From Hyphomicrobiales bacterium (GTDB taxonomy: Bacteria; Pseudomonadota; Alphaproteobacteria; Rhizobiales; Rhizobiaceae): 64,000 bases of DNA. The position numbers were made by a program, and so were the translations under genes. Where the stretch lies: NCBI GenBank assembly GCA_900470195.1, contig UEIJ01000023.1, positions 310,001 through 374,000 on the forward strand, read 5' to 3'. Numbering within the stretch: position 1 is the stretch's first letter; every line of letters begins with the position of its first letter. The notes below the pieces were generated by a model, which was given only the letters and a program-made list of their open reading frames with translations, searched no databases and was not told the DNA's origin. Below are positions 1-14,938 of the stretch, piece after piece.

Positions 1-219
1 CTCGATATTGTTGTCGCGATAGGCCGCTTCAGGACGCAGAACCAGACCGCCGCCTTCAGGTGCTTTCAGATAGGACTTGGATAGTGGTGGCTTATGATAG
101 GGAATATCGGTTTCGTCGTTGATGAGAACGATTTCTCCCGCATAGCCTTCCTGACGAAGACTGATAGCGGCCTGTGAGCCGGCATGACCAGCCCCAATTA
201 TAATGCATCTGTCGTCCAT
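1..219 (-). CDS. FAD-dependent ferredoxin reductase, N-terminal part (cut by window edge)
   Basis: Only the first 73 codons are present; the gene runs off the left edge. The protein starts MDDRCIIIGAGHAGSQAA, a GxGxxG dinucleotide-binding fold for FAD at the very N-terminus, followed by YHKPPLSKSYL near residues 40-50. That motif is typical of the NAD(P)H:ferredoxin/rubredoxin/putidaredoxin reductases that feed Rieske and P450 oxygenases. A good GGAGG ribosome site lies just upstream of the ATG. It is divergent from the creatininase operon, and the 14-bp operator palindrome at 333-346 lies between them, so it may share that regulation. No oxygenase partner is visible here. Family call is firm; electron partner unknown. 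Confidence 0.85.
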   Translation of the reverse strand, partial: MDDRCIIIGAGHAGSQAAISLRQEGYAGEIVLINDETDIPYHKPPLSKSYLKAPEGGGLVLRPEAAYRDNNIE

Positions 220-332
220 AGGACCTCCGGAAATTTCCGCTTAGCATAACGCTTCGCGTCCCGCTGCGTGACTGAACAGCCACGGATTCACACCTTAATT
301 GCACGCAATATGCATATTTTAAACATTTAGTT

Positions 333-346
333 TGACCGATCGGTCA
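333..346. promoter_or_regulatory. Perfect 14-bp palindrome, probable operator of the RutR-like TetR regulator
   Basis: TGACCGATCGGTCA is its own reverse complement and is preceded by TT. The E. coli RutR site is TTGACCA-NN-TGGTCAA, so the half-sites TTGACC and GGTCA match. The site lies between the divergent reductase (start 219) and the operon beginning at 464, whose last gene encodes a RutR-like protein. Assignment is inference from site shape and neighbourhood. Confidence 0.65.
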
Positions 347-382
347 GATTGTTTAGTAGGATGCACTAAATCTGGTTTGACG

Positions 383-425
383 CGCATCTTGTTCCGAAAA
401 CCGTTTCACACTTTTCGGGATGCGC
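383..425. repeat. Rhizobiales-type dispersed palindromic repeat
   Basis: The right arm TTTTCGGGATGCG (412-424) is complementary to the left-hand blocks CGCATC and CCGAAAA (383-400), which are separated by a five-base insertion. The sequence resembles the short intergenic palindromes scattered through Brucella and rhizobial genomes. It lies between the operator palindrome and the operon start, so it is probably transcribed in the leader and could fold there. Confidence 0.6.
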
Positions 426-463
426 TCTAACGCCCTTGGCCCGAGCGTGTAGGAGTTGCAGTC

Positions 464-1264
464 TTGAAACGATATTGGTCCGATTATACGAGCGAGGCAT
501 TCTCCCGCCTCGATCGTGAGAAGCTCGTGGCGGTTCTGCCCGTCGGCGCAATTGAACAGCACGGTCCCCACCTGCCCTTGGCGGTCGATGCCGCCATTGT
601 CGATGGCATGGTGAAGGAAACAATCGGCCGCCTTCCGGAAACAAGCCACGCGCTTTTCCTGCCGACGCAAGCCATCGGCAAGAGCAACGAACACAGCCTT
701 TATCCTGGCACGCTGACGTTCTCAGCAGAGACCATCATTCGCATGTGGTGCGAGATCGGCGCTTGCGTAGCAGCAAGCGGTGTCCGCAAGATGGCGCTGC
801 TCAACAGCCATGGGGGCCAGATCAGTGTCATGGATATTGTGGCGCGAGAGCTTCGTATCCGTCACAACATGATGGTGGTAAGCATTAACTGGTTCGGTCT
901 TGGAATGCCGGAAGGCGTGTACAGCGACCACGACCTGAAGCACGGCATTCATGCCGGTGACATGGAAACCTCGGTGATGCTGGAAATGCACCCCGAACTC
1001 GTTGATATGTCGAAAGCACAGGATTTCCGCACACTTACGGAAACTTTTGCGAGTGACTTCAAGCATCTTTCGCTGAGCGGAGGCGCCAAGCCCGCTTGGC
1101 AGATCCAGGATATCAATCCTTATGGCGCCGCTGGCGATGCGACGCTCGCGACAGCCCAGAAGGGGCGAGCGACCATTGATTTTGCTGCCGAGCAACTGGT
1201 TGAGGTTCTTGCGGAAATTGAACGAGCGCCGCTTTCCTGGCTCGACAACAAAACAGCCTGGTAA
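464..1264 (+). CDS. Creatininase-family amidohydrolase
   Basis: A 266-residue member of the creatininase/creatinine amidohydrolase family, metal-dependent hydrolases that open cyclic amides. The metal-site signature is intact: E31, H33 and D42 in the EQHGPHLPLAVD stretch, NSHGG at 114-118, and HAGDMETS at 163-170 with E168. There is no signal peptide, so it acts in the cytoplasm. It is the first gene of an operon with an ABC importer, a deaminase-like amidohydrolase and an FAD oxidase; the next gene starts 5 bases downstream. The substrate is probably a cyclic amide or lactam made or imported by this operon, but creatinine itself is not shown. Other family members act on formamides, so the exact reaction is open. 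Confidence 0.85.
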   Translation: MKRYWSDYTSEAFSRLDREKLVAVLPVGAIEQHGPHLPLAVDAAIVDGMVKETIGRLPETSHALFLPTQAIGKSNEHSLYPGTLTFSAETIIRMWCEIGACVAASGVRKMALLNSHGGQISVMDIVARELRIRHNMMVVSINWFGLGMPEGVYSDHDLKHGIHAGDMETSVMLEMHPELVDMSKAQDFRTLTETFASDFKHLSLSGGAKPAWQIQDINPYGAAGDATLATAQKGRATIDFAAEQLVEVLAEIERAPLSWLDNKTAW

Positions 1265-1269
1265 GGATT

Positions 1270-2079
1270 ATGAGCGTGGCCCCCAACTCGCAAGCTCCAT
1301 CCTCCCTGATCGATATAGACGGCGTCTATAAGCAATACGGCACTGGTGTAATGGCCGTGAGCGACATGTCGCTCAAGATCGACCAAGGCCAGTTTGTCAG
1401 CTTTCTCGGGCCCTCGGGCTGCGGCAAGAGCACGGCGTTGCGCATGATTGCCGGCCTGGAATCAATTTCCGCCGGTGAAATCCGCGTCAACGGCCATGCT
1501 CCCGGCAAGGGTCCCATCGGGGCGCAAGACATCGGTTTCGTATTTCAGGAGCCGACCCTGATGCCGTGGGCCAGCGTTTTCGACAATGTTTATTTGCCTC
1601 TGCGTCTGTCCGGCATTGCCCGCAAGGAAGCAACCCCGCGCGTCGAAGAAGCTTTGGCACAGGTTGGCCTGTCGCGCTTTGCTAAGGCATTTCCGCGGGA
1701 GCTGTCCGGAGGGATGAAAATGCGCGTTTCCATCGCTCGCGCGCTGGTTACGCGTCCGCGTCTTCTCCTGATGGACGAACCCTTTGCAGCGCTGGACGAA
1801 ATGACGCGCTTCAAGCTCAACAACGACGTGCTGCGTCTTTGGCAGGACCACGGCCTGACGGTGATTTTTGTCACCCACAGCGTTTATGAGTCGGTTTATC
1901 TGTCCAACCGCGTGGTGGTGATGGCCGCCAGACCGGGCCGCGTGGTGGCCGACATACCGATCATCGGACCTTACCCGCGCGCCGAAAACTACCGCACGAC
2001 CGACGCCTACGCAAAATATTGCGCCAAGGTATCCGACGCGCTGACCGCGACACTTTCCTCCGAAGATATCGATCATTGA
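1270..2079 (+). CDS. ABC transporter ATPase, SsuB/TauB/NitT type
   Basis: A 269-residue ATPase of an importer for small organic nitrogen or sulfur compounds. Walker [10 protein letters not shown] is at 47-55, the Q-loop has the FQEPTLMPW form typical of the nitrate/sulfonate/taurine class, the signature is LSGGM near residue 145, Walker B LLMDEP is near 170, and the switch histidine is in FVTHSV. It follows the creatininase gene by 5 bases and precedes its permease gene by 10, so the three are co-transcribed. With the permease at 2090 and the binding protein at 5520 it forms a complete SsuABC-like importer. Substrate is inferred to be the heterocycle handled by the neighbouring enzymes. Confidence 0.93.
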   Translation: MSVAPNSQAPSSLIDIDGVYKQYGTGVMAVSDMSLKIDQGQFVSFLGPSGCGKSTALRMIAGLESISAGEIRVNGHAPGKGPIGAQDIGFVFQEPTLMPWASVFDNVYLPLRLSGIARKEATPRVEEALAQVGLSRFAKAFPRELSGGMKMRVSIARALVTRPRLLLMDEPFAALDEMTRFKLNNDVLRLWQDHGLTVIFVTHSVYESVYLSNRVVVMAARPGRVVADIPIIGPYPRAENYRTTDAYAKYCAKVSDALTATLSSEDIDH

Positions 2080-2089
2080 GGACGGGACG

Positions 2090-2932
2090 ATGAATCCGAC
2101 ACAAGCCGAACTGCCTGTCCTGAATGTAGAACAGGATCGTCTCGCCCGGCGCGAGCGCATCTTGCGCATTGTCATGCCAACGCTGGCAATCATGATTGCC
2201 CTTGGCATATGGGAAGGTCTCGTCCGTTATTATCAGGTGCCGCATTACCTGATCCCCGCACCTTCGTTGGTTGCACAGACGCTCGTAAAGGACGGGCCTT
2301 CGCTAATGGCATCCATGTGGTTTACGATCAAGCTGACCTTGATCTCGCTCGGCTGCGCAATTATCGGCGGCATTCTGCTCGGCATGATTTTCGCCCTGTC
2401 TCGCCCCATCGAAATGGCATTCTTTCCTTTCGCCGTTATCCTTCAGGTAACGCCGGTAATCGCTATCGCGCCGCTGATCCTCATATATGTGCGTGATACG
2501 TTTTCCGCTCTGCTGATCTGCGCATGGATAGTGGCGTTCTTCCCGATCCTGTCCAATACGGTGATCGGTTTGCGCAGCGCCGATCATAACCTGCGCGATC
2601 TGTTCAGGCTCTATCGCGCTTCGCCATGGCAGCGCCTGCGCTATCTGCTGGCGCCAAGCGCATTGCCTTATTTCATGGCCGCCCTGAAAATCGCCGGGGG
2701 CCTCTCGCTGATCGGCGCGGTTGTCGCTGAGTTTGTTGCCGGCACGGCGGGCCAGAGCACAGGCCTTGCCTCGCGCATTCTGGAATCGAGCTTCCGCAAT
2801 GAAATTCCGCGCATGTTTGCGGCCCTCTTCCTTGTATCACTGCTCGGCATCGTAATCTTTCTGGTGACAAGCTGGCTGTCGCGCCTCGTCCTCGGACGTT
2901 GGCACGAAAGCGAAATACGCCGTGAGCGCTAA
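2090..2932 (+). CDS. ABC transporter permease, SsuC/TauC type
   Basis: A 280-residue inner-membrane permease with about six hydrophobic segments, beginning with one near residues 25-45. The cytoplasmic coupling loop reads near FRLYRASPWQRLRYLLAPSALP, the usual EAA-type loop of the sulfonate/nitrate/taurine permeases. The LxxPAPS motif after the first helix (here LIPAPS) is also typical of this family. The end overlaps the next gene's GTG start by 11 bases, indicating translational coupling. It pairs with the ATPase at 1270 and the periplasmic protein at 5520. Confidence 0.92.
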   Translation: MNPTQAELPVLNVEQDRLARRERILRIVMPTLAIMIALGIWEGLVRYYQVPHYLIPAPSLVAQTLVKDGPSLMASMWFTIKLTLISLGCAIIGGILLGMIFALSRPIEMAFFPFAVILQVTPVIAIAPLILIYVRDTFSALLICAWIVAFFPILSNTVIGLRSADHNLRDLFRLYRASPWQRLRYLLAPSALPYFMAALKIAGGLSLIGAVVAEFVAGTAGQSTGLASRILESSFRNEIPRMFAALFLVSLLGIVIFLVTSWLSRLVLGRWHESEIRRER

Positions 2933-4127
2933 AATGCTGACCGGCGTCACCATAGCCGGACTTTCCGGACGCCACGACATCGAGATCAAAGGTGATCGCA
3001 TCGCCTCGCTCGTGCCGTCGCAGTCAGCGGGTGGCGGACTTATCACCCCGCTTTTCGCAGACGTCCATGTTCATCTCGACAAAACCCTCACGATCCAGCG
3101 CATCGCAGAAAATGGCAGCGCCAAAGTGGATTGCCTGTTCGACGCAATTGACCTGATGAACACCGATCGGAAGAACTGGAGCGAGGCGGATATTCGCGCC
3201 CGCGCCAGTAAAGGCCTAAAAGCTGCGTTCGAACAAGGCGTCGGGGCGATGCGCAGCCACGTTGACTGGACGACCCCGGAACTGCCTGCAGCATGGCCTG
3301 TTCTGAATGAGTTGCGCGAAGAGTGGAAAGGCCGGATCGATCTTCAGCTGGCGGCACTTGTCCATGGCGATCTAGTGCTTGATGCCGGTTCACAAATCGC
3401 GACCCGCATTGCAAAAGACGGTGGCGTCTTTGGCGCGTTCTTCTATCGCAATGCCGATCTTGAAGACAAAATCGAAGAGATGTTCCGCCTTGCCGTGCAG
3501 CATGATCTCAACCTCGACTTCCATGTCGATGAAGGTCTGGATGTGGAAGCGGACGGCTTTTCGCTGATCATATCGGCAACCAGACGATATGGCATGGGTG
3601 GCCGGGTATTATGCGGCCACGCCTGCTCCCTGTCACTGCGTGGACCCGATGAACTCCAGCGCACCCTTCATGCCGCTGCAGATGCAGGCACGGCACTCGT
3701 TTCGCTACCCACGACAAATCTCTATCTTCAGGACAGGCTTGGAGGAAAATCCCCGCGTCTGCGCGGTGTTGCACCGCTGAAAGAAGCGCGCCGGGCAGGC
3801 ATGGATGTCATGCTCGGTTCCGACAATGTCCGGGACGCTTTCTATCCTTATGGCGATTACGATCCGCTCGCCATACTTCGTCTCGCAGCCCCAGCCTGCC
3901 ACCTTGAGCCGGATGAATGGCTCGACAGTATCACTACCCTGCCCGCCCGGCTTATCGCCGGCGAGCGCGTCCAACCCCCGCAGGTGGGCGACTCGGCCAG
4001 CTTTATCTGGCACGATGCCGAAGACCTGAACGATCTTATCAGCCGCCCGCAGGCACGTCGCATCGTCTGGCGCAATGGCATCGCACAACCCAACTCAACA
4101 GGCCAAATCATCGGGAGTTCCACATGA
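2922..4127 (+). CDS. Cytosine-deaminase-like metal-dependent amidohydrolase
   Basis: A 401-residue amidohydrolase-superfamily enzyme close to cytosine deaminase and isopropylammelide hydrolase. The metal ligands are visible: HVHLDK at 49-54 (two His), FHVDEG in mid-protein, CGHAC further on, and the catalytic Asp in LGSDNVRD followed by FYPYGDYD, all characteristic of CodA-like enzymes. The likely reaction is hydrolytic removal of ammonia or an amine from a ring carbon. The GTG start at 2922 overlaps the permease gene; an ATG at 2934 is an alternative four codons in. The stop overlaps the next start (ATGA). Context with a RutR-like regulator favours a pyrimidine-like or imidazole-like substrate, but this is inference. 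Confidence 0.85.
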   Translation: MSAKMLTGVTIAGLSGRHDIEIKGDRIASLVPSQSAGGGLITPLFADVHVHLDKTLTIQRIAENGSAKVDCLFDAIDLMNTDRKNWSEADIRARASKGLKAAFEQGVGAMRSHVDWTTPELPAAWPVLNELREEWKGRIDLQLAALVHGDLVLDAGSQIATRIAKDGGVFGAFFYRNADLEDKIEEMFRLAVQHDLNLDFHVDEGLDVEADGFSLIISATRRYGMGGRVLCGHACSLSLRGPDELQRTLHAAADAGTALVSLPTTNLYLQDRLGGKSPRLRGVAPLKEARRAGMDVMLGSDNVRDAFYPYGDYDPLAILRLAAPACHLEPDEWLDSITTLPARLIAGERVQPPQVGDSASFIWHDAEDLNDLISRPQARRIVWRNGIAQPNSTGQIIGSST

Positions 4128-5503
4128 ATTCTGCCGCTCCACAGCGCATCTATGACTGGGCCGCATTCCGCGCCGAAATCGATGGCATCCGCATTTATGA
4201 TGATCCAAAGCAGGTCGAACTGCGCTCTCGGGATTATTTCTGGTATAGCCCCATTCTGACCGAGGATATCGGCCATTATGTTGGTGATCTCGTCGTCATT
4301 CCGAAGGATCAGGACGAAGTGCGCCGCGTTGCTGCTGCCGCCGCGAAACTGCGCATCCCGATCACCGTTCGCGGTGGCGGCACCGGCAATTACGGCCAGT
4401 GCGTTCCGCTTGAAGGCGGCATCATTCTGGACATGACCAAGATCGACCGCATCATCGCAATCGAACCCGGCAAGGTTCGCGTCGAAGGTGGCGCTCGCAT
4501 TTCGCGCCTTGACGATGCCGTGCGCGAGACCGGACAGGAATTGCTGATGTATCCGTCCACACGCCGCATCGCCACGATTGGCGGCTTTTTCTCTGGCGGC
4601 TCCGGCGGCATCGGTTCGCTGCGCCACGGCATGCTGCGCGACGACGGCAATGTCTATTCCGTAAAGGTTCTCACTGTCGAGCCGGAACCGAAGGTCATCG
4701 AATTGACCGGGCGCGACATTCATAAAGTCCAGCATGCCTATGGCACCAACGGCATCATTCTGGAACTGGAAATCGGTCTCACCAAATCGACTGACTGGAT
4801 ACATACCGCTGCCTTGTTCGACAGTTACGAGGCAACGCTCAACTTCTGCCTCAAGGCATTGGAAGACAATCTCGACTGCTATCTGCTGACAACGGTAGAC
4901 CGGCGTTTTGCACGCTTCTATACCAAGTTCGGTGATCTCTTCCCGTCCGACAGGGATGCGGTTTTCGCCATGATCGCACCGGAGGAAATGGCCCGCTTCG
5001 AAGCGCTCGCGGCCGAATTCGGCGGCAGGGTTTCCTTCGCCATGACACTGGATGAGCTGCACAAGAACGGATTGCAGCCCGCTTATGAGTGTGGCTGGAA
5101 CCACACAACCTTGCAGGCGCTGAAAGCCGAGGAAGGCTGGACGTATCTTCAGGTCGCCTATCCGCGTCCTTTCGACGTGAATGTGGTGATACGCCAGATC
5201 GAGCGCTATGGTGAGACGCAGTACATGCATCACGAAATGGCCAGGCTTGAAGGCGAAGTGCAGATTTTCGCGCTTCCGCTTGTCCGCTTTGAAGGTCGTG
5301 ACGAGATGTACCGTCTGATCAAGGAACTGGAGCAGCTTGATGGCTGCGACATCTACGATCCTCATGCCTACACCATCGAGGATGGCGGCATGAAGGAGAT
5401 CGACAGCGTTCAGATCGAATTCAAGAAACTGGCCGATCCATACGGCCTTCTCAATCCGGGTAAAACACGCGGCTGGACCGCAGACATGGCTTTGACTGCT
5501 TAA
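4124..5503 (+). CDS. FAD-binding (PCMH/GlcD-type) oxidoreductase
   Basis: A 459-residue flavoprotein of the FAD-linked oxidase family that includes glycolate oxidase GlcD and vanillyl-alcohol oxidase. The PCMH-type FAD domain covers roughly residues 45-230, with VRGGGTGNYGQ and a GGFFSGGSGGIGSLRHG stretch. The C-terminus ends with the family-typical LLNPGKTRGW. The open frame extends further upstream, but the ATG at 4124 overlaps the preceding TGA and follows GGGAG, so I chose it. There is no signal peptide. It probably oxidises a hydroxyl or amine on the operon's substrate or product. No iron-sulfur partner is encoded nearby, so oxygen or a soluble carrier may be the acceptor. Confidence 0.85.
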   Translation: MNSAAPQRIYDWAAFRAEIDGIRIYDDPKQVELRSRDYFWYSPILTEDIGHYVGDLVVIPKDQDEVRRVAAAAAKLRIPITVRGGGTGNYGQCVPLEGGIILDMTKIDRIIAIEPGKVRVEGGARISRLDDAVRETGQELLMYPSTRRIATIGGFFSGGSGGIGSLRHGMLRDDGNVYSVKVLTVEPEPKVIELTGRDIHKVQHAYGTNGIILELEIGLTKSTDWIHTAALFDSYEATLNFCLKALEDNLDCYLLTTVDRRFARFYTKFGDLFPSDRDAVFAMIAPEEMARFEALAAEFGGRVSFAMTLDELHKNGLQPAYECGWNHTTLQALKAEEGWTYLQVAYPRPFDVNVVIRQIERYGETQYMHHEMARLEGEVQIFALPLVRFEGRDEMYRLIKELEQLDGCDIYDPHAYTIEDGGMKEIDSVQIEFKKLADPYGLLNPGKTRGWTADMALTA

Positions 5504-5519
5504 AACAAGGGGAACCAAT

Positions 5520-6530
5520 ATGAAAAAGACACTGGTTGCGGCGCTAGCCGCGCTTTCCATGGGGCTTTCCGCCCAGATGGCCTATGCGCTCGATAAGGTG
5601 ACGCTCGGCACCAACTGGCTGGCGCAGGCCGGTCACGGCGGGTTCTATCAGGCGGTAGCCGATGGCACCTATGAAAAATACGGACTTGATGTGCAAATCG
5701 ATATGGGAGGACCGCAGGTCAACAACCGCCCGATGCTTGCCGCAGGCCGTCTTGACTTCCTGCTGACGGGAAACCTGCTTTTGTCGTTCAATAATGTCGC
5801 CAACGGCGTCCCGACCACGGTTGTTGCTGCTTTCTACCAGAAAGACCCGCAGGCACTGATGGTGCATGAAGGTCAGTACAAGGATTTCAAGGACCTTGCC
5901 AATGCGCCGACCGTGCTGATGGGCAAGGACGCACAGTTTTCGTTCTGGCCGTGGCTGGTGAAGGAGTTCGGCTTCAAGGATGAGCAGCTCCGTCCCTATA
6001 ATTACAGCCTCGCCCAGTTCCTCAACGACAAGAAAGTCGTGCAGCAGGCTTATGCGACCGCCGAACCGATTTACGCCGAAAAGGAAGGGGCAAAGGTCAC
6101 GACTTATCTGCTTGCCGATTATGGCTACAGCACTTACGGCAACACGATAGAAACCCGCCAGGACCTGATCGAGAAGAACCCTGATCTGGTGCAGCGCTTC
6201 GTTAGCGCTTCGATCGAAGGCTGGACCAATTTCCTCTATGGCGACCGCAGCAAGGCCTATGATTTGATCCTGAAAGACAATCCGGACATGAGCAAGGAAA
6301 CGCTCGATGCGGAACTGGAGCGGATCAAGGGCCTCCAGCTCATCGACAGCGGCGACACGCTTGAAAAGGGGATCGGTGCCATTTCGATGGATCGCGTCAA
6401 GGCGTTTTACGAACTCGCTCGCAAGGCAGGAATCGTTAGCGGCGACGAACTCGACATGAGCAAGGTCGCGACCGATGCCTTCGTAAACAAGGGCGCGGGC
6501 CTCGACATCAAGAAGAAGTTGGGCCACTAA
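5520..6530 (+). CDS. Periplasmic substrate-binding protein, SsuA/NMT1-THI5-like
   Basis: A 336-residue secreted protein with a clear Sec signal (MKKTLVAALAALSMGLS..., cleavage after AYA near residue 23). The mature start KVTLGTNWLAQAGHGGFYQAVADG is typical of the NMT1/THI5-like binding proteins that bind thiamine pyrimidines, sulfonates, nitrate or aromatic acids. GGPQVNNRPML and DFLLTGN lines match the ligand cleft region of the fold. An AAGGGGAACC ribosome site precedes the ATG. It completes the ABC importer with 1270 and 2090. THI5-like proteins often bind pyrimidine rings, which fits the deaminase and the RutR-like regulator, but the ligand cannot be read from sequence. Confidence 0.9.
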   Translation: MKKTLVAALAALSMGLSAQMAYALDKVTLGTNWLAQAGHGGFYQAVADGTYEKYGLDVQIDMGGPQVNNRPMLAAGRLDFLLTGNLLLSFNNVANGVPTTVVAAFYQKDPQALMVHEGQYKDFKDLANAPTVLMGKDAQFSFWPWLVKEFGFKDEQLRPYNYSLAQFLNDKKVVQQAYATAEPIYAEKEGAKVTTYLLADYGYSTYGNTIETRQDLIEKNPDLVQRFVSASIEGWTNFLYGDRSKAYDLILKDNPDMSKETLDAELERIKGLQLIDSGDTLEKGIGAISMDRVKAFYELARKAGIVSGDELDMSKVATDAFVNKGAGLDIKKKLGH

Positions 6531-6556
6531 GTCCCTCCTAATCGCGGCAGATATGG

Positions 6557-7210
6557 ATGAACAATAGCGACGAGAATGAAGACGCCGAACTGACCGGACG
6601 GGACAAGGTTCTCGGACGCAGGCGGCGTATTCTCGGCGCAATCCGAGCTGCCGCGATCGACGAGTTTGCGGAGAAAGGCCTTGCGGGAGCGTCCACGCAG
6701 GGCATTGCACATCGTGCTGGCCTCACCAAGCCGCAACTGCACTACTATATCTCCAGCAAGGAAGAACTCTACGAGGATATCATCGTGTATATCCTTGACG
6801 AGTGGGAAGAAATTTTCCTCGGTGCCAATACCGAAAATGATCCGGCGAAGGTGATCCGGCAATATATCCGCGCCAAGCTCGAATATAGCCAGAAGAACCC
6901 CAAGGCTTCACGGCTTTTCACCACTGAAATCGCCAATGGTGCACCATATCTGAGCCGCCATTGGAAAAAACATGTCTCTGCGACCCACAATGCAGTGAAG
7001 CTTATCCAGTCATGGGTGGACGACGGTCGCATCAAGCCTGTCGATCCGCTGCTGTTTCAGATGCATATATGGGCTGTCACCCAGCACTATGCCGACTTTG
7101 AAGCGCAGGTTCGCAGCATGATGGAACTCGACAAAGACGAGCCGCTTGATCTCGAACGGATCGAGAAGGAAGTTTCGGCGCTGTTTCTGCGGGCCTGCGG
7201 GCTGGAATAA
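6557..7210 (+). CDS. RutR-like TetR-family transcriptional regulator
   Basis: A 217-residue repressor with a TetR helix-turn-helix at about residues 25-70 (FAEKGLAGASTQGIAHRAGL, then HYYISSKEELYED). The ligand-binding half contains YIRAKLEYSQKNPKASRLF, GAP and IWAVTQHYADF, closely resembling the corresponding stretches of E. coli RutR as I recall them. RutR senses uracil/thymine and controls pyrimidine breakdown. The gene follows the binding-protein gene by 26 bases and is probably the last gene of the operon. The TGACCGATCGGTCA palindrome at 333-346 has RutR-type half-sites, giving an autoregulated circuit. The effector is inferred to be pyrimidine-like. Confidence 0.85.
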   Translation: MNNSDENEDAELTGRDKVLGRRRRILGAIRAAAIDEFAEKGLAGASTQGIAHRAGLTKPQLHYYISSKEELYEDIIVYILDEWEEIFLGANTENDPAKVIRQYIRAKLEYSQKNPKASRLFTTEIANGAPYLSRHWKKHVSATHNAVKLIQSWVDDGRIKPVDPLLFQMHIWAVTQHYADFEAQVRSMMELDKDEPLDLERIEKEVSALFLRACGLE

Positions 7211-7230: not shown

Positions 7231-8073
7231 TCAGCGTAGCCCTTCAAGTTCAGCGATACGGGCGGCACTATCCCTTTCAAGCATTCTGGTCATTTCGCGA
7301 ATGACCGTTTCGGCAAGCACAAAGATTGCAGCCGACGAATCCCAGGCCGACGGCACGGCTGTTCGCCCCGCCAGAACATGCCGGGCCACGCGCGCAATCG
7401 GCGACAGCCACTGGTCGGTAACAAGAACAACCTCAACACCCCGCGACCGCGCCTTCTCGGCAAGTTGCAAAAGGCTGTCCTGATAACGGCGAATATCAAA
7501 GACCACCAGAACGTCACGCTTGCCCATGTCGAGAAGGCGGTCACGCCAGCCGCTCTCCTGCCCGCCAAGATGAAAGACCTGCGGGCGAATGACCGTCATG
7601 TGTGCGGCCATGTATTGCGCGATGGGATCGGTGAAGCGTCCGCCAATCAGGTAGATATTTCCCTTAGCGCCGCTCAAGGCTGACACAGCCTGCCTTAACT
7701 GCTTCTCGCCCAGATGCCGGAAACTCTCGCGGATATTCTCCAGCGTATGCTCGACCGCCGGATAGGCGGTGTCCGTCCTGATCCCCGGCTGTTCATTTCG
7801 ATGGTGTGGCGACTGCAATTGGGCGGCGAGTTCATCCTGTAACCGCGCCTGAAAATCGGGGTAGTTTTGAAATCCGAGCCTGTTTACAAAGCGAAGGATC
7901 GTCGGGGAGCTCACACCGGCCAGCGCGGAAAATTCCGCTACGGTTTTCAGTCCCAGGATCGGGTAATTGGCGATCAGTGTCTGCGCGGCGCTTCGCTCGC
8001 CCGCTGGCATCGTATCGATCCGCTCGTTGATCAGTTCCGCAACGCTTGCGTTCCCCGACGCTGATTTTTCCAT
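7231..8073 (-). CDS. RpiR-family transcriptional regulator (HTH-SIS)
   Basis: A 280-residue regulator with the two-part RpiR layout: an N-terminal HTH (about residues 10-80, with TVAEFSALAGVSSPTILRFVNRLGFQNY split across the recognition helix) and a SIS phosphosugar-type domain from about 125 to 260 (IYLIGGRFTD near the start). It is convergent with the TetR gene and divergent from the operon starting at 8200, which it most likely controls. Candidate binding sites are the two CAAATAATC repeats at 8112-8140. The SIS domain usually binds a sugar phosphate, but RpiR proteins next to amino-compound operons also occur, so the ligand is uncertain. Confidence 0.88.
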   Translation of the reverse strand: MEKSASGNASVAELINERIDTMPAGERSAAQTLIANYPILGLKTVAEFSALAGVSSPTILRFVNRLGFQNYPDFQARLQDELAAQLQSPHHRNEQPGIRTDTAYPAVEHTLENIRESFRHLGEKQLRQAVSALSGAKGNIYLIGGRFTDPIAQYMAAHMTVIRPQVFHLGGQESGWRDRLLDMGKRDVLVVFDIRRYQDSLLQLAEKARSRGVEVVLVTDQWLSPIARVARHVLAGRTAVPSAWDSSAAIFVLAETVIREMTRMLERDSAARIAELEGLR

Positions 8074-8107
8074 TCATTGGCTCTTTTTGAATTCGGCGAA
8101 ATTGTGT

Positions 8108-8136
8108 TTGACAAATAATCATAGGACGTATCAAAT
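8108..8136 (+). promoter_or_regulatory. Probable sigma-70-type promoter with overlapping direct repeats
   Basis: TTGACA (8108-8113) and TCAAAT (8131-8136) are 17 bases apart, upstream of the operon at 8200. Two exact copies of CAAATAATC (8112-8120 and 8132-8140), exactly 20 bases apart, overlap the -35 and -10 elements. That position would suit a repressor such as the divergently encoded RpiR protein. Confidence 0.5.
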
Positions 8137-8199
8137 AATCCGCAATAGCGCATAAACTGAAAAAACGTAACATAAGTTACAGCGCGGGGAACAAACGGA

Positions 8200-8988
8200 A
8201 TGACGGACGAGCGAGAATATCGCACGGTTTCGTGCGAGCCTGTTTCTGTCTTCAACACGGATGGGGCGAGTCCCTATCTGCTTGTTTGCGAGCATGCATC
8301 CAATTTCATTCCGGAACGTTTTGATGAACTGGGCCTTGGCGCAGAGGCATTGAAGGCGCATATCGCCTGGGACCCGGGCGCGGTCGAAGTTGCCAGACAT
8401 CTCGCATCATCGCTCGACGCATCCCTCGTCGAAAGCCGTCTTTCGCGGCTCTTGATCGACTGCAACCGCCCGCTCGATGCGCCCGACCTCATTCCCGAAC
8501 TCAGCGAGACAACCATCGTCCCGGGAAATCATGGGCTCGCGGCGGCAGAGCGCACAGCCCGTATCGATCTTTCACACCGCCCGTTCCACGGTTGTATCGA
8601 AGAAACGATCGCGGCCCGAGCCACACGCGGCCAACCTTCGTGGATCGTGACAGTTCATTCTTTCACGCCCGTTTATCGTGGCGTATCCCGGCCTTGGCAG
8701 ATCGGCATCATCCATGACGAGGACGACCGGATCGCAAAGCCCCTCATCGCCGGATTGCGGGAGGACACAAGTCTCAATGTCGGCGTCAACGAACCTTATT
8801 CCCCGGCTGATCGTGTCTATTACACGCTGGAGCGACACGCCCGCCCGCGAAACGCGCCATGCGCAATGGTGGAAATCCGCAACGACGAAATAGCCAGTTC
8901 CCGGACGCAAACCGCGTGGGCGGAAAGGCTTGCAGGCATATTGAAGCATGTCGCGCAAACACTCGCCCACACGGAAAAGAAAGCCTGA
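8200..8988 (+). CDS. N-formylglutamate-amidohydrolase-family hydrolase
   Basis: A 262-residue zinc hydrolase of the N-formylglutamate amidohydrolase (HutG-like) family. The signature CEHASNFIPE is at 30-39, followed by HIAWDPGA near residue 72, SRLLIDCNRP near 85-95 and VHSFTPVYRG in mid-protein. There is no signal peptide. It is the first gene of the catabolic operon and is followed by TRAP transporter genes 11 bases downstream. No hut genes are adjacent, so the classic histidine-degradation role is unlikely. In this context with a glutamine-synthetase-like ligase, it may cleave a glutamyl or acyl amide formed in the pathway; that role is inference. Confidence 0.82.
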   Translation: MTDEREYRTVSCEPVSVFNTDGASPYLLVCEHASNFIPERFDELGLGAEALKAHIAWDPGAVEVARHLASSLDASLVESRLSRLLIDCNRPLDAPDLIPELSETTIVPGNHGLAAAERTARIDLSHRPFHGCIEETIAARATRGQPSWIVTVHSFTPVYRGVSRPWQIGIIHDEDDRIAKPLIAGLREDTSLNVGVNEPYSPADRVYYTLERHARPRNAPCAMVEIRNDEIASSRTQTAWAERLAGILKHVAQTLAHTEKKA

Positions 8989-8999
8989 AGGAGCCGGAA

Positions 9000-9551
9000 A
9001 TGCCGAAGCCGATCAGACTGTTCGTCAAATATGTTGATGCATTGAATTATTATATCGGCCGCTTCGCGATGTATCTGTTCTTCGCGCTTGGCGCCTGTCT
9101 GCTTTATTCGACCTTTTCTCGCGTCGTCCTTGGCGTGCCGGTGAACTGGGTGCTTGAGATGTCCCAGTTTCTGCTCTCGGCCTATTATCTGCTCGGTGGC
9201 GCCTATGCCATGCAGCAGGGCGCGCATGTGCGCATGGATCTGTTCTTCGACCGTCTTTCCCCGCGCCGGAAGATGATCACGGATATGATCACGATCCTGT
9301 TCATCATCTTCTATCTCGGCGTGATGGTCGCGGGAGGCATTTCCTCGACCGGTTACGCCATCTCCTATGGCCAGAAAAATTACACGGCCTGGGCACCGCT
9401 CCTCTGGCCGATCAAACTTGTCATGACTGTAGGCATCTTTCTCCTGCTGCTGCAATGCGTCTCGAATTTCCTCAAGGACTGGGCGTCGTTCCGCGGGAAA
9501 CCGATCAACACGATTGCAGGACCGGCAATTGAGGAAGGGCACCACATATGA
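9000..9551 (+). CDS. TRAP transporter small membrane subunit (DctQ)
   Basis: A 183-residue four-helix membrane protein of the DctQ family, with hydrophobic segments near residues 20-40, 50-70, 95-115 and 140-160 and the conserved NWVLEMSQFLL and AYAMQQGAHVRMD motifs. The open frame extends upstream, but the ATG at 9000 follows an AAGGAGCC ribosome site and gives a normal DctQ N-terminus. The stop overlaps the DctM start (ATGA). Together with 9548 and 10974 it makes a complete TRAP importer driven by an ion gradient. Confidence 0.9.
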   Translation: MPKPIRLFVKYVDALNYYIGRFAMYLFFALGACLLYSTFSRVVLGVPVNWVLEMSQFLLSAYYLLGGAYAMQQGAHVRMDLFFDRLSPRRKMITDMITILFIIFYLGVMVAGGISSTGYAISYGQKNYTAWAPLLWPIKLVMTVGIFLLLLQCVSNFLKDWASFRGKPINTIAGPAIEEGHHI

Positions 9552-10873
9552 GTTCGGAACTTATCACCCTCTTCATGTTCGCCACCATGATGGTGCTGCT
9601 CATGACAGGGCAGCGCGTCTTTGGCGTCATCGGTTTTGTCGGCTCGATTGCGGCTCTACTTCTGTGGGGCAAAGGCTCCTTCGAGATGCCCTACAATGCC
9701 ACCTTCGCGGTACTGAACTGGTATCCGCTCATCACCGTGCCTTTCTTCGTCTTCATGGGCTACATGCTGTCGGAATCCGGCATTGCCAGCAATCTCTACC
9801 GGATGTTCCATGTCTGGTTCGGCGGCATTCGCGGCGGTCTGGCGCTTGGCACCATCGGCCTGATGGTCATCATTTCGTGCATGAACGGGCTAAGCGTTGC
9901 AGGCATGGCCATCGGCGCAACAGTTGCCCTGCCCGAACTCCTGAAACGGCGCTACAATAAAATCATGGTGACAGGGGTCATTCAGGCGGGCAGTTCGCTC
10001 GGCATCCTTATTCCGCCCAGCGTGGTACTGGTTCTCTACGCCATGATCGCCCGCCAGCCGGTATTGCAACTCTGGCTCGCCGGCATAGGTCCCGGCCTTC
10101 TCATGGCCGCGCTCTTCGCGATCTATATCTATATTCGTTGCCGCATCCAGCCAGAACTTGGTCCCACGCTGCCGCAAGAGGAGCTGGACAGCATCACATG
10201 GCGTGACCGTCTTGTCGCCCTGCGCGCAGGCATCCTCCCGCTTGTGGTGTTCGGTGTGATGATGGGATTGTTTCTGACCGGTGTCACGAGCCTTGTGGAA
10301 AGCTCGGCCGTCGGCGCGCTGCTTGCCACCCTGGCGGCTCTCTTCACCGGGCGACTGTCGAAAAACGTATGGGAAACTTCGACGCGCAACAGTCTCACCG
10401 TTACCTGCATGTTCCTCTGGATCATTCTGGCAGCGCTGTGCTTTTCTTCTGTCTATGACGGCCTTGGAGCTGTCAAGGCGATTGAGAACATCTTGCTCGG
10501 CACCTTCGATCTGTCGCCGTGGACGATCCTCATATTGATGCTGCTTTCGTTCATCGTGCTCGGGATGTTCCTGGATGACACCGCCATGCTGGTCATCGTC
10601 GCACCATTATATATTCCGCTGGTGAAGAGCCTCGGCTTCAACGCCATCTGGTTCGGTGTGCTCTACACCATCACCTGCCAGATCGCCTATATAACACCGC
10701 CCTTCGGGTATAATCTCTTCATGATGCGAGCGCTTGCGCCGAAAGACATCACGATGATCGACATCTATCGTTCCATCGTACCTTTCTTCTTTCTCATGGT
10801 GCTGACCATCATCATACTGATGATCTTTCCCCAGATCGCGATGTGGTTGCCCAATTGGTACACGGGGCGATGA
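9548..10873 (+). CDS. TRAP transporter large membrane subunit (DctM)
   Basis: A 441-residue, about 12-helix transport channel subunit. Family motifs include VPFFVFMGYML near residues 65-75, MNGLSVAGMAIGATVALPELLKR near 120-140, GSSLGILIPPSVVLVLYAM near 150-170, and AYITPPFGYNLFMM near 385-398. Full length for the family. It overlaps the DctQ gene by four bases. About 100 bases separate it from the binding-protein gene downstream. Substrate inferred from neighbours only. Confidence 0.92.
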   Translation: MSSELITLFMFATMMVLLMTGQRVFGVIGFVGSIAALLLWGKGSFEMPYNATFAVLNWYPLITVPFFVFMGYMLSESGIASNLYRMFHVWFGGIRGGLALGTIGLMVIISCMNGLSVAGMAIGATVALPELLKRRYNKIMVTGVIQAGSSLGILIPPSVVLVLYAMIARQPVLQLWLAGIGPGLLMAALFAIYIYIRCRIQPELGPTLPQEELDSITWRDRLVALRAGILPLVVFGVMMGLFLTGVTSLVESSAVGALLATLAALFTGRLSKNVWETSTRNSLTVTCMFLWIILAALCFSSVYDGLGAVKAIENILLGTFDLSPWTILILMLLSFIVLGMFLDDTAMLVIVAPLYIPLVKSLGFNAIWFGVLYTITCQIAYITPPFGYNLFMMRALAPKDITMIDIYRSIVPFFFLMVLTIIILMIFPQIAMWLPNWYTGR

Positions 10874-10973
10874 TGGAACCTATGGTTGACTGCGCATAAG
10901 TCGGCGACAAGAGCCGGGAACGGCCGGGCCGGTACAAATAAAGGGTGAACTCAAACAGAGTGGGAGAATGGGT

Positions 10974-12041
10974 ATGAGCGAGAATACCAAGCTAAACAAA
11001 CGCGATTTTCTCAAGAAGGCCGGACTGACGACCGTAGGCGCACTCGGCGCCGGCACACTTGCAACGCCCCATGTCAGGGCGCAGAGTCCGATCAAATGGC
11101 GGCTCCAGACCTATGCAGGTCCGGCCCTTGCCGAGCACGTCATCAAGCCGTCAATCGATGCTTTCAACAAGGCCGCCAATGGCGAGATGATCATCGAACT
11201 ATATACTGCCGATCAGCTTGTGCCCCAGGGCGAGCTTTTCCGCGCCGTGCAGTCCGGCACCATCGACGCAGCACAAAGCGACGACGACTCCATGGCGTCG
11301 CCGGTGGATATAGCGGTCTTCGGGGCCTATTTCCCGTTTGCGTCGCGCTATAGTCTCGATGTGCCGGCGCTCTTCAACTGGTATGGTCTCAACGAAATAT
11401 GGGAAGAGGCGTATAAGGAAATTCCGGGCGTCACCTGGCTCAGTGCCGGATCGTGGGATCCGTGCAACTTCGCCACAACCAAGCCGATCCGCAGTCTGCA
11501 GGATCTGCAGGGACTGCGTGTCTTCACCTTCCCTACCGGCGGTCGTTTCCTCACCAAATTCGGCGTCGTTCCGGTAACTTTGCCATGGGAAGACATTGAG
11601 GTCGCGATCCAGACCGGCGAACTGGATGGCGTGTGCTGGTCCGGCGCGACCGAGGTTTATACGGTCGGTTGGGCCGACATCAACAAATACTACCTCACCA
11701 ATAATATCAGCGGCGCGTGGGCTGGCTCCTATTTCGCCAATACGGAAAAGTGGGAGGCCGTGCCGGATCACCTCAAGCAGTTGTTCAGGCTGGCTATGGA
11801 TAGTTCGCATTACTATCGCCAGCACTGGTACTGGTGGGGCGAAGCCCATTACCGCACGACAGGCGGCAAGCTGGAACTCACCAGCATCCCTGAAGCTGAA
11901 TGGAAACAGGTGGAGGATGCGGCCATGCAGTTCTGGGACGAAATCGCCGCCAAGAGCGAGCGAACCGCCAAAGTCGTCGAAATCCTCAAGAAATACCAGA
12001 AGACGATGCGCGATGCCGGCGCACCCTATCGTTATGCCTGA
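10974..12041 (+). CDS. TRAP transporter substrate-binding protein (DctP/TakP-like)
   Basis: A 355-residue periplasmic binding protein. The N-terminus NKRDFLKKAGLTTVGALGAG looks like a Tat signal with a Lys-Arg pair in place of Arg-Arg, ending near VRAQS. The mature part has the TakP-like pattern: QTYAGPALAEHVIKPSIDAFN, LQGLRVFTFPTGGRFL, and WSGATEVYTVGWADINKYYLTN. TakP-type proteins bind 2-oxo acids or related carboxylates. I placed the start at 10974 because GGGAG (10962-10966) is only one base from the in-frame ATG at 10968 but seven from this one. The imported compound is presumably the substrate of the GS-like/ALDH/ADH genes that follow. Confidence 0.88.
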   Translation: MSENTKLNKRDFLKKAGLTTVGALGAGTLATPHVRAQSPIKWRLQTYAGPALAEHVIKPSIDAFNKAANGEMIIELYTADQLVPQGELFRAVQSGTIDAAQSDDDSMASPVDIAVFGAYFPFASRYSLDVPALFNWYGLNEIWEEAYKEIPGVTWLSAGSWDPCNFATTKPIRSLQDLQGLRVFTFPTGGRFLTKFGVVPVTLPWEDIEVAIQTGELDGVCWSGATEVYTVGWADINKYYLTNNISGAWAGSYFANTEKWEAVPDHLKQLFRLAMDSSHYYRQHWYWWGEAHYRTTGGKLELTSIPEAEWKQVEDAAMQFWDEIAAKSERTAKVVEILKKYQKTMRDAGAPYRYA

Positions 12042-12059
12042 CATGTGCCTGACAAAGAT

Positions 12060-12083
12060 GGCGCCGTGCATTCGCGCGGCGCC
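12060..12083 (+). other. Intercistronic hairpin after the TRAP binding-protein gene
   Basis: GGCGCCG (12060-12066) pairs with CGGCGCC (12077-12083). No T-run follows, so it is more likely an mRNA-stabilising or attenuating hairpin than a terminator. Such hairpins after binding-protein genes often raise the amount of that protein relative to its partners. Confidence 0.5.
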
Positions 12084-12114
12084 TCTCACTTCATCCTGTG
12101 GAGCAAAGCATTAA

Positions 12115-13485
12115 ATGGCCGGACAATTAACACTTGATGCATTGAAGAAGGCGGTAGCGGAAGGCGAAATCGACACGGTTCTCGCCTGTTTCGTGGACAT
12201 GCAGGGGCGTTTGATCGGCAAACGCTTTTACGGTAAGTTTTTCGTGGAATCCGGTTATGAGGAAACCCACGGCTGCAATTATCTTCTCGCTGATGATATC
12301 GATATGGAGCCAGTGCCGGGCTATGAAGCCGCCGCCTGGGACAAGGGCTATGGCGATTTTGTCATCAAGCCGGACCTCTCCACTCTGCGCCTCGCTCCGT
12401 GGCTGGAAAAGACCGCCCTTGTGCTGTGTGATGTACTCGACCATCACGACCACCAGGATCTGGCGCATTCGCCGCGCGCAATCTTGAAGAAGCAGATCGC
12501 CCGCCTCGATGAGCGCGGCTATCGCGCCTATTTCGCGTCCGAACTCGAATTCTATCTCTTTGACGAGACCTACAAAACCGCCCGCTCCAAGCGCTGGCAG
12601 GACATGGAAACGGCATCGCCCTATGTGCAGGACTATGTCATTCATCTCACCACCAAGGAAGAACCGGTGCTGCGCGCTATGCGCAACCAGTTGGCGGCGG
12701 CAGGCATTCCGGTTGAGAATTCAAAGGGCGAATGGGGGCCAGGGCAGGAAGAGCTGAATGTGCGCTATGCTGAAGCTCTCGAAATGGCAGACCGCCACGT
12801 CATCATGAAGAACGCCATGAAGGAAATCGCCGAGGCGCACGGCAAGTGCATCACTTTCATGGCGAAGTATGACTACAACAAGGCCGGAAGCTCCAGCCAC
12901 GTGCACAACTCCATCTGGAGCGCCGATGGCAAGGAGCCATTGTTCTTCGACCCGAAAGCCCCGTACACAATGACGCCGCTGATGCGTTCATGGGTGGCCG
13001 GACAGCTAAAATATGCCGCCGACTACACCTACTTCCTGGCCCCTTACATCAACTCCTACAAGCGTTTTCAGGCTGGCACCTTTGCACCCACGAAGATCAT
13101 GTGGAGTCCGGACAACCGCACTGCGGGCTTCCGTCTTTGCGGCGAAGGCACGAAAGGCATCCGCATTGAATGCCGTATCGGTGGCGCGGACCTCAATCCC
13201 TATCTCGCCTTCGCGGCACTGATCGCGGCCGGGCTAAGAGGGATAGATGAACAACTTGAACTGGAGGAACCATTCGTCGGAGATGCTTATAGCGCCGTGA
13301 AGCTGAAGGAAATTCCTTATACGTTGCGGGAAGCCGCGCAAGCTCTCAAGACCTCAGACTTCCTGAAGGAAGCGTTCGGAGAAGCGGTGGTCAACCACTA
13401 TGTCCACACAGCGCATTGGGAACAGATCGAATATGACCGGCGCGTAACCGATTGGGAACTGCATCGCGGTTTCGAGCGCTACTGA
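12115..13485 (+). CDS. Glutamine-synthetase-family ligase (PuuA/gamma-glutamylamide-synthetase-like)
   Basis: A 456-residue enzyme of the glutamine-synthetase fold, sized like gamma-glutamylputrescine synthetase rather than housekeeping GlnA. Visible catalytic motifs: SELEFYLF near residue 145 (metal Glu), GPGQEELN near 205, SSSHVHNSIW near 260 (metal His and ATP site), and RTAGFRLCGEGTKGIRIECRIGGADLNPYLA near 335-365. The regulatory adenylylation Tyr loop of GlnA is not evident. The family joins glutamate to an amine using ATP. Being followed by an aldehyde and an alcohol dehydrogenase suggests that it gamma-glutamylates an amine or amino alcohol to protect it during oxidation. Partner amine unknown. 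Confidence 0.87.
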   Translation: MAGQLTLDALKKAVAEGEIDTVLACFVDMQGRLIGKRFYGKFFVESGYEETHGCNYLLADDIDMEPVPGYEAAAWDKGYGDFVIKPDLSTLRLAPWLEKTALVLCDVLDHHDHQDLAHSPRAILKKQIARLDERGYRAYFASELEFYLFDETYKTARSKRWQDMETASPYVQDYVIHLTTKEEPVLRAMRNQLAAAGIPVENSKGEWGPGQEELNVRYAEALEMADRHVIMKNAMKEIAEAHGKCITFMAKYDYNKAGSSSHVHNSIWSADGKEPLFFDPKAPYTMTPLMRSWVAGQLKYAADYTYFLAPYINSYKRFQAGTFAPTKIMWSPDNRTAGFRLCGEGTKGIRIECRIGGADLNPYLAFAALIAAGLRGIDEQLELEEPFVGDAYSAVKLKEIPYTLREAAQALKTSDFLKEAFGEAVVNHYVHTAHWEQIEYDRRVTDWELHRGFERY

Positions 13486-13521
13486 CCCTGACATAAAGCC
13501 AGACTTCAAAGGAAAATACAG

Positions 13522-14907: not shown

Positions 14908-14938
14908 TCCCGCGCTGCAATTCTGGAAAGCAATCGAC

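What the first reader, a model, noticed from the sequence alone, without database searches (positions are those of the whole stretch)
333..7210. A RutR-like-controlled operon for an unknown N-heterocycle
The operon joins a creatininase-family hydrolase, a THI5/SsuA-type ABC importer, a cytosine-deaminase-like amidohydrolase and an FAD oxidase under a regulator resembling RutR, the pyrimidine sensor. I do not know a described pathway with this set. The enzymes suggest ring oxidation, hydrolytic deamination and cyclic amide opening of a pyrimidine-, imidazole- or creatinine-like compound. The order of steps and the substrate are inference.
Basis: partly seen in the sequence, partly recalled or inferred. 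Interest (0 to 1): 0.7.

Follow-up and report, generated by a model that had tools for sequence, protein, structure and literature searches.

The report
Heterocycle-breakdown operon with RutR-like control
A recurrent set of bacterial genes, with no matching pathway found in print, that appears to import and take apart a nitrogen-containing ring compound, perhaps a pterin from vitamin B9, under its own RutR-like switch.

Summary
Seven tightly packed genes (464-7210) encode a creatininase-family hydrolase, an ABC ATPase and permease, a cytosine-deaminase-like amidohydrolase, an FAD oxidoreductase, a THI5/NMT1-type binding protein and a RutR-like regulator. The unit is wider than described: a palindrome at 332-347, the only perfect copy in the genome, is conserved in 17 of 85 related loci, and a ferredoxin-reductase-like gene and a RidA gene run divergently. 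The set recurs: of 69 FAD-anchored loci with good flanks, 64 have the creatininase-type gene, 61 the deaminase, 57 a Rid gene. The genome has a separate pyrimidine-type operon with a closer RutR, so this looks like a parallel module. Residues argue against cytosine and creatinine. The FAD enzyme is 44% identical to solved structure 6v42; I recall, but could not confirm, that its title names folate catabolism. Best reading: catabolism of an aminated pyrimidine-type ring, most likely a pterin; thiamin pyrimidine is the main named rival. The substrate is not shown. Ten searches of a held library gave no described pathway with this set among the papers listed.

The parts
1..219 (-). 5' end of a divergent ferredoxin-reductase-like gene (Pyr_redox_2 + Reductase_C); it continues upstream of the window and is followed there by a RidA-family gene (L013:12591-12977, minus strand)
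   Evidence: (best NCBIfam HcaD, 314.6 against cut-off 450); found in 24 of 85 loci
332..347 (.). Putative operator TTGACCGATCGGTCAG (14-bp perfect palindrome at 333-346); may overlap a -35 box
   Evidence: only perfect copy in the own genome; within 300 bp upstream of the creatininase-type gene with at most 1 mismatch in 17 of 85 loci; in those 17 (16 distinct sequences) site identity to the majority 0.97 against 0.73 and 0.54 in the flanks
464..1264 (+). Creatininase-family amidohydrolase (TTG start), not a true creatininase by cut-off
   Evidence: PF02633 234.5 bits; TIGR04448 87.4 against cut-off 235; motif comparison
1270..2079 (+). ABC importer ATP-binding protein
   Evidence: PF00005
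2090..2932 (+). ABC importer permease
   Evidence: PF00528
2922..4127 (+). Cytosine-deaminase-like amidohydrolase with intact metal and catalytic residues but a different substrate pocket
   Evidence: PF07969/PF01979; PRK07583 326.7 against cut-off 403; residues
4124..5503 (+). FAD-binding oxidoreductase (FAD_binding_4), same subfamily as PDB 6v42/6v43
   Evidence: PF01565; 403.6 bits to 6v42, 194 of 442 identical; HG[DE]G[NQ] motif in 0 of 85 relatives
5520..6530 (+). Periplasmic binding protein of the NMT1/THI5 family, THI5/ThiY branch
   Evidence: PF09084; the 6 PDB sequences that the family profile matches at E 0.01 or better are 4nmy, THI5 (2), ThiY 3ix1 and THI13 (2)
6557..7210 (+). RutR-like TetR-family regulator
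   Evidence: PF08362 and PF00440; TIGR03613 147.9 against cut-off 368; best PDB matches are RutR

Best explanation
A substrate-induced operon for using an aminated, pyrimidine-type N-heterocycle as a nitrogen (and perhaps carbon) source, most likely a pterin such as a folate breakdown product. The binding protein and ABC transporter import the compound. The amidohydrolase removes the ring amino group by hydrolysis. The FAD enzyme oxidises or oxygenates the ring, with electrons handled by a ferredoxin reductase or, in relatives, a flavodoxin-like NAD(P)H oxidoreductase. The creatininase-family enzyme hydrolyses the resulting cyclic amide (or a formamide). RidA clears an enamine or imine product. 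The RutR-like repressor sits on the palindrome at 332-347 between the two divergent units and lets go when the compound or an early product binds. Shown: gene content, recurrence of the set, kept deaminase catalytic residues, a unique conserved palindrome. Inferred: repression, ligand, reactions and their order, and the pterin identity.
For: Operon architecture. Recurrent enzyme set with correlated divergence. Of the six CodA metal/catalytic residues, five are kept in 71 of 71 relatives and Glu217 in 69 of 71. The binding protein falls in the THI5/ThiY branch. A comparable operon elsewhere in the genome joins a RutR, an NMT1 transporter and ring-acting hydrolases for pyrimidines. Unique conserved palindrome. 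The FAD enzyme is 44% identical to 6v42 over 442 aligned positions; 6v42 groups with Mesorhizobium loci L115 and L122 (support 0.954), which carry the same set apart from the regulator. The folate-catabolism title of 6v42 is recalled only.
Against: The pterin identity rests on a recalled title that I could not check; the structure tool answered busy to every accepted alignment. I did not search for carboxypeptidase G or known pterin deaminases, and none of the recurrent neighbour families that I identified is specific for folate. The FAD enzyme lies in a different clade from 6v42, so its substrate may differ. The operator is missing in L054 and L055 and is not found in most loci outside the closest group, although many of those carry the regulator (L110 has a 2-mismatch site). 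The binding-protein evidence is weak: of four other NMT1 proteins of the genome compared, three score higher than this one on 4nmy and ThiY. Transporters vary between loci (SulP in L080, Opp-type in L113).
Confidence: 0.45

Rival explanations
1. The operon degrades the pyrimidine half of thiamin (HMP or related aminopyrimidines). The importer takes up HMP-like compounds, the deaminase removes the 4-amino group, the FAD enzyme oxidises the hydroxymethyl group, the creatininase-family enzyme opens the ring and RidA hydrolyses the enamine.
For: The binding-protein profile matches six PDB sequences, five named as thiamin-pyrimidine proteins (THI5, THI13, ThiY 3ix1) and 4nmy, which I recall as thiamin-bound. 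FAD_binding_4 enzymes often oxidise alcohols (general knowledge).
Against: Three of four other NMT1 proteins of the genome, including the one in the pyrimidine-type operon, score higher on 4nmy and ThiY, so this is a property of the branch, not of the ligand. Thiamin genes were not searched for; none turned up among the neighbour families identified.
Confidence: 0.15
2. The operon degrades another N-heterocycle of the purine/hydantoin/methylated-pyrimidine kind, or a nucleotide-derived ring.
For: A 5'-nucleotidase-like gene sits inside the cluster in L097 and L104 (domains tested in L104); a xanthine-dehydrogenase set lies next to it in R. leguminosarum TA1; allophanate hydrolase adjoins it in R. 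leguminosarum CB782 (1 of 85 loci).
Against: Each of these neighbours was seen in one or two loci only. Cytosine and creatinine are argued against by residues.
Confidence: 0.25
3. The operon is a RutR-controlled variant of uracil/thymine degradation (Rut or reductive pathway).
For: RutR-like regulator; Rid proteins in relatives match RutC weakly, below cut-off.
Against: Dihydropyrimidinase (609.7 against cut-off 393), a hydantoinase/carbamoylase-family hydrolase, a transporter and a closer RutR (257 against 148 bits) lie together at C50; no RutA-type monooxygenase among the seven genes. The dehydrogenase of the reductive pathway was not among the C50 genes scanned and was not sought elsewhere.
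Confidence: 0.04
4. The gene set is a detoxification system for a reactive or antimetabolite ring (for example a pterin or pyrimidine analogue) rather than nutrition.
For: Rid proteins are usually detoxifiers (general knowledge); the set looks accessory in the genus (full-length close FAD gene in 31 of 35 genomes).
Against: A dedicated importer next to the enzymes fits uptake for use.
Confidence: 0.08

Closest known systems
Flavoenzyme PDB 6v42/6v43 (nearest named proteins: Hoeflea)
   Same: Same FAD_binding_4 subfamily, 194 of 442 positions identical; its nearest loci L115 and L122 hold the same gene set
   Different: Different clade; no RutR-like gene found in L115 and L122, and related Rhizobium loci (L011, L124) have a LysR gene in the cluster; substrate and title not verified here
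Pyrimidine-type operon with RutR (C50 of the same genome)
   Same: RutR-type regulator, NMT1 binding protein and ABC ATPase, ring-acting hydrolases
   Different: Uses dihydropyrimidinase and a hydantoinase/carbamoylase-family hydrolase; among the genes scanned there no creatininase-type, FAD_binding_4 or cytosine-deaminase-like enzyme
Rut pathway of E. coli (recalled)
   Same: RutR-like regulator, Rid protein, separate electron supply
   Different: No RutA-type monooxygenase among the seven genes; regulator below the RutR cut-off
Cytosine deaminase CodA (PDB 1k6w)
   Same: Sequence similarity over 340 residues and six metal/catalytic residues
   Different: Gln156, Asp314 and Trp319 replaced; scores below the curated cut-offs listed
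BrbF/ArfB-type and true creatininases
   Same: Creatininase family, with EQHGPHLP, NSHGGQ and HAGDxETS motifs
   Different: Not creatininase, MftE or IolN by cut-off. Relation to Oant_3869, the O. anthropi homologue that failed to replace BrbF (PMC9478397, passages seen), not settled: the genome has three family members
Lumichrome (riboflavin) lum cluster, PMC12746152 (passages seen)
   Same: Hydrolytic removal of a fused pyrimidine ring in a vitamin catabolic pathway
   Different: Uses a P450, a TPP decarboxylase, a xanthine-oxidase-like enzyme, Rieske and catechol dioxygenases, none among the seven genes; compared by gene content only

Membership tests
RutR (pyrimidine sensor) | Passes the curated RutR equivalog cut-off | tested here: not met
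   TIGR03613 147.9 against 368; PRK15008 126 against 230. The C50 RutR also misses both (257; 227.8 against 230)
RutR (pyrimidine sensor) | Binds a TTGACCAnnTGGTCAA-like operator (consensus recalled; one search listed no paper with TTGACCA) | tested here: inconclusive
   Similar palindrome TTGACCGATCGGTCAG at 332-347, conserved in 17 of 85 loci; binding not testable
Rut or reductive pyrimidine pathway | RutA-type monooxygenase or dihydropyrimidinase in the operon | tested here: not met
   None among the seven genes; dihydropyrimidinase lies at C50
Cytosine deaminase (CodA) | Metal and catalytic residues H61, H63, H214, E217, H246, D313 (numbering recalled) | tested here: met
   71 of 71 for five, 69 of 71 for the Glu
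Cytosine deaminase (CodA) | Substrate residues Q156, D314, W319 (recalled) | tested here: not met
   Q in 0 of 71 at the aligned place (1 has Q within two columns); Asn in 71 of 71; Phe in 70 of 71
Creatininase (EC 3.5.2.10) | Passes the creatininase equivalog cut-off; Tyr121-Glu122 after the metal-binding His (recalled) | tested here: not met
   TIGR04448 87.4 against 235; Gly-Gly at that place (invariant in 16 of 16 aligned)
6v42-type flavoenzyme | Full-length sequence similarity | tested here: met
   403.6 bits; 44% identity over 442 positions
6v42-type flavoenzyme | Same substrate (folate catabolite, recalled title) | not testable with these tools
   Structure tool busy on every try; 6v42/6v43 named in no paper of the library
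D-2-hydroxyacid/glycolate oxidases | C-terminal HGDGN-like motif (recalled) | tested here: not met
   0 of 85 relatives
THI5/NMT1 binding proteins | PF09084 above cut-off | tested here: met
   83.4 against 20.5 bits
THI5/NMT1 binding proteins | Binds an aminopyrimidine | not testable with these tools
   Only sequence similarity to THI5, THI13 and ThiY

The most novel reading that the evidence does not exclude
A widespread, undescribed bacterial route for taking apart the pterin ring of folates: import, hydrolytic deamination, flavin-dependent ring oxidation, lactam hydrolysis by a creatininase-family enzyme and RidA clean-up, switched on by a pterin-sensing relative of RutR.
Probability: 0.35. 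Interest if true: 0.65.

Novelty: new variant of a known kind. Interest (0 to 1): 0.48.

Why it matters
Bacterial breakdown of vitamins and their rings is poorly mapped: a 2025 paper says that only the catabolic pathways of B6, NAD and riboflavin are well characterised (PMC12746152, passages seen). A compact, recurrent gene set with a solved flavoenzyme relative and a predicted operator makes the substrate directly testable with a small panel of compounds. It would also give a function to many proteins now named only creatininase family, cytosine deaminase or FAD-binding oxidoreductase.

Tried and rejected
Cytosine, creatinine and uracil as substrates: argued against by residues and gene content. 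D-lactate/glycolate-type oxidase: rejected on motif. Riboflavin/lumichrome pathway: PMC12752717 (part 1 of 2 of the text) and PMC12746152 (passages) describe different enzymes. Neighbour genes as substrate clues (representatives scanned): mostly unrelated, or seen in one to three loci (5'-nucleotidase-like, SulP, Opp-type binding protein, MmgE/PrpD, allophanate hydrolase), so only hints. The RpiR/TRAP unit downstream was set apart because many other loci have other genes there. Among the palindromes printed for 23 upstream regions of more distant loci (best three each), none recurs between loci. Structure prediction never ran, so no fold search was possible. The gene calls are crude (the FAD gene of the window itself was missed there); counts rest on tblastn instead. 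L006-L008 were misread and left out of that comparison (5 of 8 used, this one included).
Full report
Observation. Pfam identifies a creatininase-family hydrolase (464-1264), ABC ATPase (1270-2079), permease (2090-2932), amidohydrolase (2922-4127), FAD_binding_4 oxidoreductase (4124-5503), NMT1 binding protein (5520-6530) and a TetR regulator with the YcdC/RutR C-terminal domain (6557-7210). The named close relatives of the FAD protein are Brucella/Ochrobactrum.

Upstream on the other strand are a ferredoxin-reductase-like gene (its 5' end is at window 1-219) and a RidA-family gene. Between the reductase and the operon is a perfect 14-bp palindrome at 333-346. Allowing two mismatches, the 15-mer has one perfect site in the genome; the others are 2-mismatch sites at about the level of the control pattern (10 matches in all, counting the perfect site on both strands, against 6). 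A site with at most one mismatch lies within 300 bp upstream of the creatininase-type gene in 17 of 85 loci; it is missing in L054 and L055 and in the other loci, of which many carry the regulator; L110 has a 2-mismatch site at -52. In those 17 loci (16 distinct sequences) the 22-base site is 0.97 identical to the majority, its flanks 0.73 and 0.54. This fits an operator of the adjacent RutR-like regulator; binding is inference.

Conservation. With four plasmid loci and the own locus (85), tblastn finds FAD 85 (by construction), creatininase-type 73, amidohydrolase 71, permease 68, binding protein 68, ATPase 67, regulator 49, flavodoxin-like oxidoreductase 45, Rid proteins 36 (one query) and 31 (another), ferredoxin reductase 24, 2Fe-2S ferredoxin 11, allophanate hydrolase 1; some loci are cut short. 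Of 69 loci with at least 4 kb on both sides: 64, 61, 60, 59 and 59 for creatininase-type, amidohydrolase, permease, ATPase and binding protein; 41 the regulator; 57 a Rid gene. The flavodoxin-like oxidoreductase and the ferredoxin reductase tend to exclude each other (2 both, 34 and 18 alone, 15 neither; Fisher p 8e-6, not corrected for kinship), which suggests alternative electron partners. Partner-gene distances follow FAD distances (r 0.84-0.89, 0 of 300 permutations as high). Of 35 genomes of the genus, 31 have the full FAD gene at 87% identity or more, one has it in three pieces, three have no close match; 9 of 25 other genomes of the order have a 40-44% relative.

Enzymes. The amidohydrolase scores below every curated cut-off listed (best: PRK07583, 326.7 against 403). 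Aligned with E. coli CodA, 71 of 71 relatives keep five metal/catalytic residues, 69 the sixth (Glu). The residues I recall as contacting cytosine differ: Gln156 is His here and Gln in 0 of 71 (Pro 32, His 11, others fewer; one relative has a Gln within two columns); Asp314 is Asn in 71 of 71; Trp319 is Phe in 70 of 71. So it is probably a deaminase by chemistry with another substrate. The creatininase-family protein lacks the Tyr-Glu pair of true creatininase; EQHGPHL, a lysine-Glu-His stretch (GKSNEH), HGG and a later His and Glu (HAGDxETS) are conserved in the 16 sequences aligned. Work on BrbF found a distant O. anthropi homologue, Oant_3869, that did not replace BrbF (PMC9478397, passages); I could not tell whether it is this gene, as the genome has three family members. 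The FAD protein has an HGDGN-like motif in 0 of 85 relatives and is closest in the PDB to 6v42, 403.6 bits and 44% identity.

Substrate. The best named relative of 6v42 is a Hoeflea protein at 90%, followed by Mesorhizobium and others. In a tree, 6v42 groups with L115 and L122, whose loci carry the same set apart from the regulator. I recall its PDB title as a flavin oxygenase of folate catabolism; no tool result confirms this, no paper in the library names the entry, and the structure queue stayed full. The binding-protein profile matches 4nmy, THI5, THI13 and ThiY in the PDB (6 sequences), but of four other NMT1 proteins of the genome compared, three score higher on 4nmy and ThiY than this one does, so this supports an aminopyrimidine-like ligand only loosely. 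The genome has a separate pyrimidine-type operon at C50: a closer RutR (257 bits, itself just under the curated cut-offs), dihydropyrimidinase (609.7, above cut-off), a hydantoinase/carbamoylase-family hydrolase (above cut-off), an ABC ATPase and an NMT1 protein; its dehydrogenase was not among the genes scanned. The window operon looks like a parallel version for another ring. Variovorax sp. F1 degrades folate by carboxypeptidase G and a pterin deaminase related to Arad3529; the paper has no mention of gene clusters, creatininase or transporters (PMC9513972, passages and word counts).

Verdict. A real, recurrent catabolic module of a known general kind, with no described pathway found for it. 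That it handles an N-heterocycle is likely (my estimate about 0.8); that the ring is a pterin is a lead (about 0.4).

Noticed in passing
window 7231-16111: A separate unit: RpiR-type regulator, N-formylglutamate-amidohydrolase-like protein, TRAP transporter (DctQ, DctM, DctP), glutamine-synthetase-like ligase, aldehyde dehydrogenase and iron alcohol dehydrogenase; it resembles gamma-glutamylated amine or amino-alcohol catabolism.
   Followed up: partly
L013:5897-12485: An MFS transporter, GcvP and a GcvH-sized gene lie upstream of the RidA gene; in L044 a GcvT gene is there too. Whether folate-linked glycine cleavage next to this operon means anything is open.
   Followed up: no
L097:6015-7877 and L104:5961-7862: A 5'-nucleotidase/UshA-like gene inserted inside the homologous cluster (domains tested in L104).
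   Followed up: partly
L080, L082, L088: No ABC importer found; a SulP-family gene stands next to the creatininase-type gene (domain tested in L080 only).
   Followed up: no
G006:C2:1072610-1073894: The FAD gene appears in three overlapping pieces in a genome that is 69% complete; real break or sequencing error not examined.
   Followed up: no
L012:12404-14800 and seven other loci: A transketolase-like protein of about 800 residues recurs near the cluster in 8 loci of mixed origin (domains tested in L012 only).
   Followed up: no
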